The position numbers were made by a program, and so were the translations under genes. Shown here one piece after another: positions 54,344-58,673 of a stretch of 64,000 bases of DNA. The notes under the pieces are model-generated. The model worked only from the letters and a program-made list of their open reading frames with translations. It was not told the DNA's origin and made no database searches. How positions within the stretch are numbered: the first letter of the stretch is position 1; each line of letters begins with the position of its first letter. This DNA is from Hymenobacter sp. 15J16-1T3B (lineage in GTDB: Bacteria; Bacteroidota; Bacteroidia; Cytophagales; Hymenobacteraceae): contig NZ_JAJFAV010000003.1 in assembly GCF_020711235.1 (NCBI RefSeq), positions 372,001 to 436,000 on the forward strand, in the 5' to 3' direction.

Positions 54344-55930
54344 TCACCGGCCCGAGCCGTCCCGGTCGAAGGCGTGGGTGGCCACGCCGCTTTCGGTTTT
54401 GATTTTCAGCTCGGGCGCGGGCTCCACTTCGTTGTTGCGCTTGGTGTCGTAGAAGCGCGTTTTGCGGCGTAGCCCGGCCACGCGGGAGCTGTCGGCCACG
54501 GAGTCCTCGCCGGGGCCGCCGTAGATGTCGATGCGCGGGGAGCGGCGCACCTGCCCGCGGAGCACGAATTCGTCTTTGCCGCCGAGCCCGTGCAAGAGCA
54601 CCCGCTTGGTTTCGGCGGGGTGGAAGGCGCGGCGGTAGAGCAGGGTTTCGGCTTTGTCGCGGCTGAAGACCGACACCACGGTCAGTGAGTCGCTTTGCCG
54701 CTCCACCACGAAGCGTTCCGGCTCGTCGGTGCCCGGCACCACCACTTCCTCGGCGTGCCGGCGGTAGAATTCGGCGGCGGCGGCCGGCAGCGTGGCCCGG
54801 CGGGCTTTGAGCGCCGCCACCAGGCGCGGCCCTTCCAGCCGGTACACCTCCGGCGGCAGCCGGCGCGCCGCCCGCTCGATGACCTCGTCGGTGAGGGCCT
54901 GCTGCAGCGAGGCGGCGGCGTCCAGGTACTGCGGGCGCGTCAGCTCGTTCAGAGCCCGCGAGTCGATAAAGTGCGCGTTGCGGGTGTAGCCGCCGATGCT
55001 CTGGTACGCGGGCCCAAACGTGCGAAACTTGCGCACGGCCTTGCTCACCAGCCAGGAAATGACCCCGTCGTCGAAGCGGAAGAAGACCTGGTCCCGGTCG
55101 ATGGGAATGGGGCGGTAGAGCGTGCGGGCCTCCTGCTGCACGGCCACCCAATCCCACTGGCCCTCGTGCCGGTCCCAGTCGCCCAGCCAGAGGTCGAGCA
55201 GGCGCGCGCGCAAAAAGGCGGGCTGGTCGAAGCGGTGGCGCCCGTCGCGGTAAATGGCTTCCAGCGCGTCGTCGCTTTCCATCAGGTCCTCGGCCCCGGG
55301 CCCAAACCCGGCGTTGAGGTTGTCCTTGCTTTCGTACTTTTCCTCCAGCAGCACCACTTTGCCCCGAAACCGCTCCGAGGCCTTGTCCAGCCCGGTTTCG
55401 TCGTTGCGAATGTAGAAGGGGCGGGGCTTGGTGTGCAGCACGCCGGCGGCTTGGGCCAAGGGCGGCACCACGAAGGCGCCGTAGGGCGTGCCGGCCGAGG
55501 TGGCGTCGCGCACCACGTTGAGGACGAAGGTGTGGCGCAGCACCTTGGGCAGGGTTTTGTAGGGGTCTTTGTCGAGGCTGCGCAGGGCGTAGGTGCGTCC
55601 GTCGGGGCCGTTGAGCGTCATGCTGGTGGTCTGAAAGCCGCCGCCCATTTTGCCGGGCTGCAGGCCGCCGGGCGCGGCGCGGCGCAAATCGAGTACGGGC
55701 AGGGTGACGGGCTGGGCCCAGGTGGCGCGGTAGTGCTGGCCGAAGAGCAACCGTCCCGGCCAGCCACGACGGTAGTGGCGGCCGGCCGTCACGCGGGCGC
55801 TGTCGGGGCCCACGGCGGCTTGGGCCGCCGCGTCCGGAATGCGGGCGTCGGGCTGAAAGAAGCGCTGGCGGGCGCAGCCGGCCGAAAGCAGGCCGAGCAG
55901 GAGCGCAGCGCCGGAAACACAGCGCGTCAT
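54344..55930 (-). CDS. Lipoprotein with CotH/HipA-like kinase motifs, 528 aa
   Basis: Lipoprotein signal (LLLGLLSAGCARQ). The first part has RHYRRGWPGRLLFGQHYRAT, then PDGRTYALRSLDKDPYK (about 109-125), which looks like the ATP-lysine strand. GDWDRHEGQWDW (250-261) resembles the catalytic loop of CotH/HipA/FAM20-type kinases, and YRPIPIDRDQVFFRFDDG (about 272-289) resembles the metal-binding segment. The last third has a beta-domain: PGTDEPERFVVERQSDSLTV, then VLLHGLGGKDEFVLRGQV. As recalled from related bacteria, this module is the middle of large metallophosphoesterase/BamA-like proteins; here the phosphoesterase and barrel are missing. Start at ATG 55930; the upstream frame runs into the divergent promoter region. 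Paralogue of 56097-57695. Confidence 0.75.
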   Translation of the reverse strand: MTRCVSGAALLLGLLSAGCARQRFFQPDARIPDAAAQAAVGPDSARVTAGRHYRRGWPGRLLFGQHYRATWAQPVTLPVLDLRRAAPGGLQPGKMGGGFQTTSMTLNGPDGRTYALRSLDKDPYKTLPKVLRHTFVLNVVRDATSAGTPYGAFVVPPLAQAAGVLHTKPRPFYIRNDETGLDKASERFRGKVVLLEEKYESKDNLNAGFGPGAEDLMESDDALEAIYRDGRHRFDQPAFLRARLLDLWLGDWDRHEGQWDWVAVQQEARTLYRPIPIDRDQVFFRFDDGVISWLVSKAVRKFRTFGPAYQSIGGYTRNAHFIDSRALNELTRPQYLDAAASLQQALTDEVIERAARRLPPEVYRLEGPRLVAALKARRATLPAAAAEFYRRHAEEVVVPGTDEPERFVVERQSDSLTVVSVFSRDKAETLLYRRAFHPAETKRVLLHGLGGKDEFVLRGQVRRSPRIDIYGGPGEDSVADSSRVAGLRRKTRFYDTKRNNEVEPAPELKIKTESGVATHAFDRDGSGR

Positions 55931-56096
55931 GCGGTCGGAGGGGAGCAGAGGTCTGGCATAGAATTCAGGTGTCCTTACGCAGCCGTGCCGGAAATGGTCG
56001 AACTTATCCGGCGTGGGCAACCGCCCCGGCGGCGCTGCGGTATAAGAGGCAGCTTTTCGGGTCGGGGCCGCCGCTGGCCCCACTACCGTTGCCGCT
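55931..56096. other. Divergent promoter region of the kinase-like pair
   Basis: 166 bases between two paralogous, divergently transcribed genes. Promoters for both must lie here. No strong TTG/TAnnTTTG pair is visible in the GC-rich sequence. Confidence 0.4.
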
Positions 56097-57695
56097 TTGC
56101 TGACCTTGCTACCCACTTCCCGTCTGTTGCTGCTGGCCCTGGGGCTGCCGGCTGCTTCGGCCCGTGCCCAAACGGCCGCCGCCCCGCCCGCCATTTCCGC
56201 CGATTCCATCGTGCACGTGGCCGCCGGCCCGCAGTACCGCCGCGGCTGGCTGCACCAGCTCATGTGGGGCTTTCACTACCGGCGGGAGTGGGCCACGCCC
56301 GTCACGGCGCCGGTATTCAACCTGCGCACGGCCGTGCCCGGCGGACTCAAGCCCGTGAAAGAGGGCGGCAGCTTTCAAACCCACAACCTGCGCTTGGTGG
56401 CCCCCGACGGCCGCCAGTACGTGCTGCGCTCCGTCGACAAAGATGCCACCGCCGCCCTGCCCGAAGACATGCGCAACGGCTGGATCGGGCGGCTGATGAA
56501 GGACCAGACCAGCGTCATTCACCCCTACGGCGCCTACATCGTGCCGCCGCTGGCCCGGGCGGCCGGCGTGTACCACACCAACCCACGCCTGTACTACCTG
56601 CCCGATGACCCCGCCTTGGGCGAGTACCGGGCCGCTTTTGCCAACGCGCTGTACCTGTTCGAGGAGCGGCCCGAGGGCGACCAGCGCATGGTGCGCAGCT
56701 TCGGCGCCTCGGCCCAGGTGGTCAGCTCTAAGCACGCGTTTACCCAACTGGTGGCCTCGCCGCGGGTGCACGTCGACGCCCGCCACTACCTGCGCAGCCG
56801 CCTCTTTGATATGTGGCTGGGCGACTGGAGCCGGCGCGAAGATCAGTGGCGCTGGGCCGCCTTTCCGGGCCCCGACAGCACCACCGTGCTCCGGGCCATT
56901 CCGCGCGACCGGGACCACGCCTTTTTCAAGTTCGACGACGGCGTCATCACGCGACTGGTCAGCTTCGTCAAAACCAATTACCAAACCTTCTCGCGCGACA
57001 TCAAGCTGCACGACGTGGAGGGCCTGAACCGCGCCGCCCGGCCCATGGACAAGTCCCTGCTGGTGTATCTCTCGGAGCAGGATTTTCACCAGGTAGCCGA
57101 TTCGCTGCGCCTTGCCCTCACCGATAAGGTCATTGCCGATGCCCTGCAGGTGTGGCCCAAGGAAGTGTACGCGCTGTCGGGCGAGGAATTTCAGCAGAAG
57201 CTGCAGAGCCGCCGCGAGCAGCTGCCGCGGGTGGCCGAGGAGTTTTACCGCCAGCTGGCCCGGGAGGTCGAAATACCCGGCACCGACGAGCCCGAGCGGT
57301 TCGTGGTGGAAGCTGCCGGCCCCTGGCAGGCCTGGGTGCGGGTGTACGCCCTGCGCCCCGACGGCCGCAACGGCCGCCTCATCGGCCAGCGCCTCTTCGA
57401 CGCGCGCCAGACCGGCACCGTCAGCCTCTACGGTCTCGGCGGCAACGACGAATTTCAGCTCGTGGGCCAGCCCGACCGGCGCCTGCGCATCCACATTTAC
57501 GACGGCCAGGGCCAAGACGTGGTGCAGCAGCTCCAAGTGCCACCGCGCGCCCTCAAAACGCGCGTCACCATCTACGATTCCGGCGACGGTAACCTGCTGA
57601 AAGTCGGCAAAGACCAAGTCGAGACCGAAGCCTACCAGCCCAAAGCCAACGAGTACGACGGCGCCGGCTGGTTGCTGCGGCACCGCCTGTACTGA
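56097..57695 (+). CDS. Exported paralogue of the kinase-like protein, degenerate catalytic loop, 532 aa
   Basis: Signal peptide from TTG 56097 (LLPTSRLLLLALGLPAASA, ending A-R-A-Q). It parallels 54344-55930 along its length: PQYRRGWLHQLMWGFHYRRE, then PDGRQYVLRSVDKDATA (about 104-119), PYGAYIVPPLARAAGVYHTN, and IPRDRDHAFFKFDDG (268-282). The catalytic-loop-like motif is GDWSRREDQWRW (242-253): the D and H of D-R-H are S and R, so if this is a kinase fold, this copy is probably inactive. The C-terminal third also matches (PGTDEPERFVVE, LYGLGGNDEFQLVGQP). Ends before any barrel. Strong terminator follows at 57699-57758. Confidence 0.75.
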   Translation: MLTLLPTSRLLLLALGLPAASARAQTAAAPPAISADSIVHVAAGPQYRRGWLHQLMWGFHYRREWATPVTAPVFNLRTAVPGGLKPVKEGGSFQTHNLRLVAPDGRQYVLRSVDKDATAALPEDMRNGWIGRLMKDQTSVIHPYGAYIVPPLARAAGVYHTNPRLYYLPDDPALGEYRAAFANALYLFEERPEGDQRMVRSFGASAQVVSSKHAFTQLVASPRVHVDARHYLRSRLFDMWLGDWSRREDQWRWAAFPGPDSTTVLRAIPRDRDHAFFKFDDGVITRLVSFVKTNYQTFSRDIKLHDVEGLNRAARPMDKSLLVYLSEQDFHQVADSLRLALTDKVIADALQVWPKEVYALSGEEFQQKLQSRREQLPRVAEEFYRQLAREVEIPGTDEPERFVVEAAGPWQAWVRVYALRPDGRNGRLIGQRLFDARQTGTVSLYGLGGNDEFQLVGQPDRRLRIHIYDGQGQDVVQQLQVPPRALKTRVTIYDSGDGNLLKVGKDQVETEAYQPKANEYDGAGWLLRHRLY

Positions 57696-57832: not shown

Positions 57833-58594
57833 TTAGTTGCCGTGGATGTGGTCGATGCGAAACATGCCGGCGGCCAGGTTATCCGCGAGCTGCGCCGACG
57901 GCGCGTCGCCCGAGGCCGAGCTCATCTGGGCGAACCGCACCGGCTGGGGGCCGTCGAACAGCTTCAGCACGTTGGCTTTGAGGTGCATTTCGGGGGAGGC
58001 CCCCTCCTTGATGTGCAGTGCCGTGGTGCCCGCCGGCAGCGGCAAGGTGAGCGTGCGAATGTTATTATAGGGGTCCTCGAAGCCGGCAATATCGAAGAAC
58101 AACCCGCCGTTGCCGGGCGCCTTGCTGGAGCTGCCGTTGAGGCGCAGGAAAATGTAGCCCGTTGTCCAGTTCCAGATCATCTGGTGGGCCGGGTCGAGGG
58201 CCCCGGTTTGCGCCCCGGCCGTGTTGCGCGGCGCGTCCACCCCGATGGTAATGCGCAGGGCGGTGTAGTCGCCCGCGGGCACATCTTTGATGGTCAGGTG
58301 CTGGGAGTCGGCTTGGGCCTGGTCGATGAGGTAGTAGCTTTCCGGTTCGGCCCACACCGAGCCGTCGGCGCGCACCAGTTGCACGTTGGTGAGGTAGTAG
58401 CGAAACTCCGTGACCTTAAAATCGTCGCCGGCCGCGGTCGTGTACGCCGTGTTGTACGCCAGCGTGCTGCTGCCCACCACGTTTTCCACGTGCATTTCTA
58501 GCTCGCCGGTTTCTTGCTGGGGCGTGACGTGCTTGTTTTCGCAGGCGGCCAGTAACAACAGGCCGGCGAGGGCAGGGTAGAGGATGGATTTCAT
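57833..58594 (-). CDS. MbnP-family lipoprotein, 253 aa
   Basis: Lipoprotein signal (LAGLLLLAACENKH, lipobox L-A-A-C). The rest is the MbnP-type beta-sandwich: FRYYLTNVQLVRADGSVWAE, then YYLIDQAQADSQHLTIKDVP, ITIGVDAPRNTAGAQTGALD and MIWNWTTGYIFLRLNGSSSK, all characteristic of this family. MbnP proteins act with MbnH in methanobactin-related copper handling in other bacteria; here there is no MbnH or methanobactin gene nearby, so copper binding is a family-level guess. Start at ATG 58594 (a TTG at 58600 adds two residues). Confidence 0.88.
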   Translation of the reverse strand: MKSILYPALAGLLLLAACENKHVTPQQETGELEMHVENVVGSSTLAYNTAYTTAAGDDFKVTEFRYYLTNVQLVRADGSVWAEPESYYLIDQAQADSQHLTIKDVPAGDYTALRITIGVDAPRNTAGAQTGALDPAHQMIWNWTTGYIFLRLNGSSSKAPGNGGLFFDIAGFEDPYNNIRTLTLPLPAGTTALHIKEGASPEMHLKANVLKLFDGPQPVRFAQMSSASGDAPSAQLADNLAAGMFRIDHIHGN

Positions 58595-58673
58595 ACGCAA
58601 GGCGGCGGGTTGAGAGTTGCCGGAACACTACCCCACTCGCAAATCCTCGGCGCCAGGGTTGCCTTGGGTAAGA

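What the first reader, a model, noticed from the sequence alone, without database searches (positions are those of the whole stretch)
54344..57695. Divergent pair of exported CotH/HipA-like proteins, one with an apparently dead catalytic loop
Two paralogous genes share a 166-base divergent region. Both have the linear order of kinase-like motifs: a Lys-containing strand (ALRSLDKDP / VLRSVDKDA), then a loop resembling GNxDRHxxNW (GDWDRHEGQWDW in one, GDWSRREDQWRW in the other), then a PI-x-DRD-x-x-FFxF segment. As I recall, such modules usually lie between a calcineurin-like phosphoesterase and a BamA-like barrel in large Bacteroidota proteins. Here both copies are free-standing and end before any barrel. 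A lipoprotein with the motif and an exported copy without it suggest an enzyme/pseudoenzyme pair at the cell surface. Seen: motifs, paralogy, gene order. Inferred: kinase fold, activity and partnership.
Basis: partly seen in the sequence, partly recalled or inferred. Interest (0 to 1): 0.72.

Follow-up and report, generated by a model that had tools for sequence, protein, structure and literature searches.

The report
Exported kinase and pseudokinase gene pair
Two neighbouring genes make exported proteins with a kinase-like shape, one with a complete active site and one that has lost key catalytic parts, and they have stayed close together in many related bacteria, which suggests an enzyme and its inactive regulatory partner outside the cytoplasm.

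Summary
A (54344-55930, -) and B (56097-57695, +) are exported paralogues, 42% identical, 166 bp apart. AlphaFold models of both are confident (pTM 0.89, 0.90); their best PDB match is the HipA-like kinase CtkA. No Pfam family covers them. They belong to an unnamed Bacteroidota module that otherwise lies between a calcineurin-like phosphoesterase and an Omp85-like barrel, or before a barrel alone. In 187 aligned modules the catalytic-Asp position is lost only in B (18) and in one fused group (16). Of 22 positions invariant in the other 153, B lost three: a glycine in the strand 1-2 loop, the catalytic Asp and the next His; it keeps Lys, Glu and both DRD aspartates. B is under purifying selection. 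Its loop occurs in 118 of 204 genomes of the family and in none of 391 sampled outside it. Of 91 assessed B loops, 90 lie within 5.1 kb of an A-type loop. Best reading: an exported kinase-like enzyme with a pseudokinase partner, like Fam20C/Fam20A, probably periplasm-facing. Computed: predicted fold, motifs, linkage. Inferred: activity, binding, substrate.

The parts
54344..55930 (-). Gene A, 528 aa: exported lipoprotein (C19), kinase-like domain about residues 45-394, beta-rich C-terminal domain about 395-515
   Evidence: AlphaFold model pLDDT 88.1, pTM 0.89; Foldseek best match CtkA E 1.5e-6
55148..55183 (-). A: catalytic loop G250-D251-W252-D253-R254-H255-E-G-Q258-W259-D-W261
   Evidence: Coordinates checked; D253 and H255 in 153 of 153 members outside the B and Gly253 groups, D251 in 187 of 187
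55091..55105 (-). A: P276-I277-D278-R279-D280, at the place of the metal-binding (DFG-type) Asp
   Evidence: Coordinates checked; P276, R279, D280 in 108 of 108, D278 in 107 of 108
55634..55645 (-). A: G96-G97-G98-F99 in the loop between strands 91-96 and 103-107, the place of a glycine-rich nucleotide loop
   Evidence: Secondary structure of the model; G98 in 153 of 153 members outside the two loss groups, Ser in 18 of 18 B
56097..57695 (+). Gene B, 532 aa, TTG start, signal peptide without lipobox Cys: paralogue that has lost the catalytic Asp and His
   Evidence: model pLDDT 88.4, pTM 0.90; Foldseek best match CtkA E 2.1e-4
56820..56855 (+). B: altered loop G242-D243-W-S245-R-R247-E-D-Q-W-R-W253
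   Evidence: Coordinates checked; Ser in 18 of 18 B members, second Arg in 16 of 18; pattern for D-W-S-R-R-E-D-Q-W in 118 of 204 genomes of the family
56364..56375 (+). B: G90-G91-S92-F93, altered glycine loop
   Evidence: S92 in 18 of 18 B members against Gly in 153 of 153 outside the two loss groups; coordinates checked
55931..56096 (.). Shared divergent region, 166 bp in 6 and 168 bp in 1 of 7 aligned genomes of the genus, with a conserved GGTATAA stretch

Best explanation
A and B are the enzyme and the pseudoenzyme of an exported protein-kinase-like pair. Supported by computation: both are predicted to have a kinase-like fold; A keeps the complete catalytic set (glycine loop, K121, E196, D253, H255, Q258, D278, D280); B keeps the residues expected to hold nucleotide and metal but has lost the catalytic Asp, the following His and one glycine of the loop; B is under purifying selection and has stayed close to A. 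Inferred: A, anchored by its lipid to the inner face of the outer membrane, transfers phosphate (or another nucleotide-derived group) to an envelope protein, lipid or glycan; B, without a lipid anchor in most members, binds A, perhaps with nucleotide in its pocket, and switches or stabilises it, as Fam20A does for Fam20C. The pair is the free-standing form of a module that other Bacteroidota carry in front of an outer-membrane barrel, often behind a phosphoesterase.
For: Fold; the profile of 81 modules gives CtkA as its best PDB sequence match, aligned on the catalytic loop (E 0.061, weak). Motifs: of 22 invariant positions B lost 3, in the glycine and catalytic loops; four other subgroups treated the same way lost none. 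Selection: dN/dS 0.12-0.19 for B and 0.14-0.24 for A, six pairs each among four genomes. Linkage: among 24 genomes of the family 18 have B, in each beside an A-type gene or at most 3.6 kb from it; 90 of 91 assessed B loops lie within 5.1 kb of an A-type loop, all 90 divergent. In 2 of the 18 (G014, G022) the pair is tandem, in G014 with other neighbours. A-type genes occur in 24 of 24 genomes and B in none without A, as for an accessory subunit. Precedent: Fam20A/Fam20C (PMC4421793, passages).
Against: No assay. Foldseek TM-scores are low (at most 0.33 over the query, 0.56 over CtkA). The second match of the family profile in the PDB, a non-kinase (YaaH, E 0.1), is nearly as good as CtkA. With a looser cut-off (85%) two further B-specific changes appear, S103 and A146, not obviously in the active site. 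The neighbouring genes are conserved too, so the linkage in the main block may be mere synteny. Unrooted, A, B and the fused forms are three separate groups, so A+B as one clade depends on the root. The periplasm is thought to hold no ATP (recalled), so the donor is unexplained. D251, not D253, is the residue that never varies (187 of 187), so loss of D253 need not mean loss of activity.
Confidence: 0.45

Rival explanations
1. B is not dead: it is an enzyme with changed chemistry, the way SelO or SidJ use a kinase fold for AMPylation or glutamylation. The fixed Ser-Arg-Arg loop and the retained D243, K115, D271 and D273 would serve another transfer reaction.
For: S245 and S92 are fixed (18 of 18 each) and R247 nearly so (16 of 18); the exact loop is in 118 of 204 genomes; purifying selection; the Asp at 251 (D243 in B) is in 187 of 187. 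Repurposed kinase folds are known (SidJ: start of an abstract; SelO as AMPylase recalled).
Against: A conserved pseudoenzyme interface would also be fixed. No positive sign of another reaction.
Confidence: 0.2
2. Neither protein is a kinase in practice: the fold is kept as a binding or scaffold module of the outer membrane, because there is no ATP in the periplasm.
For: Exported proteins and fused forms before a barrel; no ATP expected there (recalled).
Against: D253 and H255 are kept in 153 of 153 members outside the two loss groups, also in fused forms whose phosphoesterase lacks the GNHD motif (of 100 fused Asp253 forms 29 lack it, 70 keep it, 1 has a gap there). That is hard to explain without catalysis.
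Confidence: 0.2
3. B is a separate protein with its own job; it lies beside A only because the chromosomal block is stable.
For: The genes around the pair in the window (AI-2E family transporter, DUF2383, exonuclease/GIY-YIG, topoisomerase IB, M48 peptidase, APP1-type phosphatase; Pfam) recur with it in loci of other genera (8 to 12 of the 28 loci compared). A occurs without B in 6 of 24 genomes.
Against: The pair is also adjacent in another setting and orientation in G014 (and tandem in G022), and other A-clade genes lie divergent to a fused member in 6 genomes.
Confidence: 0.25

Closest known systems
CtkA, HipA-like kinase of Helicobacter pylori (PDB 3akj, 3akk, 3akl)
   Same: Best structural match of both models and best, though not significant, sequence match of the family profile (E 0.061); its loop G-N-F-D-R-H-N-G-N-W lines up with G-D-W-D-R-H-E-G-Q-W
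   Different: 10-14% identity and low TM-scores; Asn instead of Asp at the first loop position; partners of CtkA were not examined
CotH kinases (PF08757)
   Same: Profile comparison aligns G-D-W-D-R-H with G-N-W-D-N-Y and P-I-x-D-R-D with I-P-Y-D-Y-D over 240 columns (E 0.0074 for one comparison, probability 5%)
   Different: 0 of 81 members reach the Pfam model at E 0.1; no CotH structure among the 50 listed fold matches of either model
HipA (PF07804; PDB 2wiu, 4pu4)
   Same: Among the best fold matches; N-x-D-x-H-x-x-N loop and a P-A-Y-D segment at the matching places (sequences)
   Different: Cytoplasmic toxin with an antitoxin (recalled); profile comparison E 0.039 and not on the motif
Fam20C and Fam20A
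   Same: Secreted kinase with a pseudokinase paralogue that activates it (PMC4421793 and PMC5413348, passages); analogy of arrangement only
   Different: Animal proteins; Fam20A keeps the catalytic Asp and lost a Glu, B the reverse; homology not tested
Phosphoesterase-module-Omp85 proteins of Bacteroidota (no family name found)
   Same: Same module, homologous over its length
   Different: A and B lack phosphoesterase and barrel

Membership tests
Protein-kinase-like fold | Two-lobed kinase core recognised by structure comparison | tested here: met
   Predicted models only. A: 13 matches at E 0.001 or better, best CtkA 1.5e-6; B: 5, best CtkA 2.1e-4. Nearly all of the 50 listed rows of each are kinase-fold entries by my reading of the titles; one of B's (8ox9, a flippase) is not
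Protein-kinase-like fold | Lys, Glu, catalytic Asp and metal-binding Asp conserved | tested here: met
   Lys, both Asp: 153 of 153 outside the loss groups; Glu196: 33 of 36 A-clade and 117 of 117 fused. B keeps all but the catalytic Asp. Roles assigned by alignment, not by structure superposition
CotH (PF08757) | Match to the curated model | tested here: not met
   0 of 81 members at E 0.1; A and B alone 0 families at E 1
CotH (PF08757) | Kinase activity on Ser-rich substrates | not testable with these tools
   Needs an assay
HipA (PF07804) | Match to the HipA_C model | tested here: not met
   0 of 81 members at E 0.1
HipA (PF07804) | Small HipB-like antitoxin gene beside it | tested here: not met
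   In the window the pair is flanked by topoisomerase IB and MbnP genes, and no open frame of 40 aa or more lies wholly inside either gap; other genomes not checked for short genes
Kinase/pseudokinase pair (Fam20-type arrangement) | Paralogue lacking a catalytic residue, kept under selection, co-occurring with the active copy | tested here: met
Kinase/pseudokinase pair (Fam20-type arrangement) | Physical complex and stimulation of activity | not testable with these tools
Bacterial lipoprotein (A) | Signal peptide with lipobox Cys | tested here: met
   L-S-A-G-C19 in A; read by eye, 27 of 36 A-clade proteins have the Cys and 9 an N-terminal hydrophobic stretch without it. No signal-peptide program was run

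The most novel reading that the evidence does not exclude
The module is an extracytoplasmic phosphotransferase family that works at the outer membrane without cytoplasmic ATP, perhaps on polyphosphate or a pyrophosphate-linked lipid, opposed by the phosphoesterase in the same chain. In the family of the window it also exists as a free kinase with a dedicated pseudokinase, and a sister fused protein became a double pseudoenzyme. This would be kinase signalling or tailoring in the Gram-negative periplasm with its own regulators.
Probability: 0.12. Interest if true: 0.85.

Novelty: new variant of a known kind. Interest (0 to 1): 0.6.

Why it matters
If A is active, Bacteroidota have a widespread kinase-like enzyme outside the cytoplasm (family found in 114 of 296 sampled genomes of the phylum) for which A and B match no Pfam or NCBIfam family (one chance hit far below its cut-off). 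The A/B pair would be a compact bacterial system for asking how a pseudokinase regulates its enzyme, and where a phosphate donor comes from in the periplasm.

Tried and rejected
Membership of CotH or HipA: rejected on Pfam scans. The profile link to CotH is suggestive only (E 0.0074, probability 5%); HipA E 0.039; CotH against HipA, which share the fold, E 0.028; control with the phosphoesterase domain E 0.69.

Random decay of B: rejected by dN/dS and by the fixed losses at few places. Spread of the B loop beyond the family: 4 of 395 sampled genomes of the phylum have it, all 4 in the window's own family. A quick tree joined A and B (support 0.905); the careful tree gives three groups, A, B and fused, with the root open, so I do not claim an order of duplication.

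A mobile origin: not supported, the pair lies in a chromosomal block conserved across genera. A paper describing the family: none found in the held open library (listings and starts of abstracts seen). I read passages of PMC4421793, PMC5413348, PMC12599244, PMC9758233 and PMC10281475; a term search of PMC8262856 gave no passage. A cited paper on a Riemerella metallophosphoesterase (Niu 2021, seen only in a reference list) may concern the fused form; it is not held.

Rows dropped: one fragment of a split gene (L092, 460 aa) before the alignment of 108; L174 left out of the 80 loci because it is a second copy from the organism of L164 with the same score; CotH loci L200, L207 and L215 (18 of 21 used) and nine of 20 HipA loci (11 used) were not put into the profiles. 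One search covers 91 of the 120 B loops because the A listing was cut. One search kept the best 80 of at least 582 relatives. Part of the output was cut, so the neighbours of two loci (L079, L075) were not seen in full.
Full report
What is there. Gene A runs from 55930 to 54344 on the minus strand (528 aa) and gene B from 56097 to 57695 on the plus strand (532 aa, TTG start); 166 bases lie between. They are paralogues, 207 of 497 residues identical. A has a lipoprotein signal (L-S-A-G-C19), B a signal peptide without such a Cys (read by eye). In seven genomes of the genus the gap is 166 bp in six and 168 bp in one, the TTG start is kept in all seven, and the region holds a conserved GGTATAA stretch. 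Neither protein matches a Pfam family at E 1. In NCBIfam A has no match and B one chance hit far below its cut-off.

The family. The own genome holds five members: A, B and three fused ones with open frames of 888, 1382 and 1254 aa. Pfam finds a calcineurin-like phosphoesterase at the front of the 1382 aa frame and, below its cut-off, of the 1254 aa one; a relative of 1273 aa has both the phosphoesterase and an Omp85 barrel; the 888 aa protein shows only a barrel match below the cut-off. Of 38 genomes searched, 27 have a member, among them all 24 of the window's family. In a sample of 296 genomes of the phylum 114 have one. A scan of named genomes kept 80 loci (of at least 582 relatives), from Hymenobacter, Pontibacter, Rufibacter, Adhaeribacter, Larkinella, Chitinophaga, Mucilaginibacter, Labilibaculum and others. 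That scan selected on the stretches [GA]DW and DRD, so it is no independent proof of those residues. The window is probably from Hymenobacter or a near genus (inference from these relatives).

Conservation. I aligned 108 modules from 27 genomes and 79 of the 80 named loci, 187 in all. Position 253 is Asp in 153, Ser in 18 and Gly in 16. The 18 Ser forms are free-standing B-type proteins; the 16 Gly forms lie in one fused group that also holds one Asp form. D251, two residues before, is Asp in 187 of 187. Within residues 45-395, 22 positions are invariant in the 153. B has lost three of them: G98 to Ser (18 of 18), D253 to Ser (18 of 18) and H255 to Arg (16 of 18); the Gly group lost two, D253 (16 of 16) and R254 to Lys (13 of 16). 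Four other subgroups of 14 to 36 members, treated the same way, lost none. With a looser cut-off of 85%, B also differs at S103 and A146. G98 lies between the first two strands of the sheet (91-96 and 103-107), where kinases have the glycine loop. B keeps R111, K115, E189, D271, R272 and D273, each in 18 of 18. Two B proteins that form one of its two main branches still have His (GDWSRHEDNW), so the Asp probably went before the His.

Fold. With 81 sequences each, AlphaFold gives pLDDT 88.1 and pTM 0.89 for A and 88.4 and 0.90 for B. Foldseek against the PDB: for A the six best are CtkA of Helicobacter pylori (E 1.5e-6 to 5.1e-6), followed by HipA, YihE and Rio2, with ADCK3 and PI4K IIalpha a little lower. 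For B the five best are CtkA (2.1e-4), Rio2, ADCK3, TvaE and HipA. TM-scores are low (at most 0.33 over the query and 0.56 over the target for A), so this is shared fold, not close kinship. By sequence, the profile of the 81 modules has two PDB matches up to E 10: CtkA (E 0.061), aligned on its loop GNFDRHNGNW, and a non-kinase, YaaH (E 0.1). Profile comparison with 18 CotH domains aligns both motifs (E 0.0074, probability 5%); with 11 HipA domains E 0.039, off the motif; with the phosphoesterase E 0.69.

The pair. Among 24 genomes of the family 18 have a B, each beside an A-type gene or at most 3.6 kb from it: 16 divergent, 2 tandem. In two of the divergent cases (G008, G013) a gene lies between that is a formate-tetrahydrofolate ligase (Pfam for G008, similarity for G013). 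A pattern for the exact B loop hits 118 of 204 genomes of the family, in five of six genera, with no hit of the reversed control, and none of 391 sampled genomes outside the family. Of 91 B loops that could be assessed, 90 have an A-type loop on the same contig within 5.1 kb, 83 within 2 kb, always divergent. Of the seven that lie further than 2 kb, two are the G008 and G013 cases; I opened two more (G369, G373) and found an A-type gene with a slightly different loop directly beside B; three were not opened. The one exception is a second, shorter B (472 aa) in G373. dN/dS is 0.12-0.19 for B and 0.14-0.24 for A (six pairs each, four genomes). The block around the pair is conserved as well, so the linkage is weaker evidence than its count suggests; the tandem pairs of G014 and G022, in G014 clearly among other neighbours, are the better evidence.

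Phylogeny. A careful tree of 72 rows makes A one group (bootstrap 100, SH-aLRT 100), B one (100, 97) and all fused forms one (100, 95); the root is not known. The Gly253 label needs two changes on this tree.

How it probably works. A has what a kinase of this type needs. B has what holds nucleotide and metal but not the catalytic Asp. Together with selection and linkage this fits an enzyme with a pseudoenzyme partner, as Fam20A stimulates Fam20C in the animal secretory pathway (PMC4421793 and PMC5413348, passages read). The place is probably the periplasmic side of the outer membrane: the module precedes an Omp85-type barrel in fused relatives, whose amino end is periplasmic (recalled), and no acidic residue, as in known surface-export signals of Bacteroidota (recalled), follows the Cys of A closely. 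The donor is open, since ATP is not expected there. One hint: I fetched seven loci of module-barrel genes from other families, two of them because a CotH match had shown up close by; in three of the seven a CotH gene is near. One of these (L239) also has polyphosphate kinase, two PAP2 phosphatase genes, a phosphate-porin gene and a histidine-phosphatase gene by Pfam, and the other two share several of these by similarity. I give the pair reading 0.45.

A side result. In the fused Gly253 group all 16 proteins have also lost the phosphoesterase motif GNHD (GDKD instead) and GHEH. Of 100 fused Asp253 proteins 70 keep GNHD, 29 lack it and one has a gap there. This looks like a double pseudoenzyme that kept its barrel. 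One protein placed inside this group, in G023, still has Asp253 but shows GDKD, so the phosphoesterase may have gone first.

Noticed in passing
L098:2826-6587 and relatives (G000:C33:27825-31586, outside the window): Fused phosphoesterase-module-barrel group in which both enzyme domains have lost catalytic motifs (16 of 16 Gly253 proteins): an apparent double pseudoenzyme kept across genera.
   Followed up: partly
L238:6502-11386, L239:6090-11705, L242:3335-9130: In three of seven fetched loci the module-barrel gene lies near a CotH kinase gene (two of the seven were picked for that); L239 also has PPK1, two PAP2 genes, a Porin_O_P gene and a histidine phosphatase. A phosphate-related neighbourhood.
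   Followed up: partly
G010:C1:4604069-4609986, G015:C3:2261338-2266849, G019:C1:4681201-4686892; also G012, G017, G021: Other A-clade free-standing genes, three of them only about 400 aa and without the C-terminal domain, lie divergent to a fused family member 0.7-2.5 kb away, so pairing of a free with a second member recurs.
   Followed up: partly
L257:4038-5453: A second, shorter B-type gene (472 aa) with the SRR loop and no A-type gene in the 10 kb fetched around it.
   Followed up: no
57833-58600 (-): MbnP family gene (PF20243, E 1.1e-53) directly after B in the window; a similar gene follows B in the loci L051 and L054.
   Followed up: no
A residues about 395-515, B about 390-512: Beta-rich C-terminal domain with G-G-x-G-x-D stretches that recall RTX repeats; 1 of 81 members has a weak HemolysinCabind match (E 0.022).
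   Followed up: no
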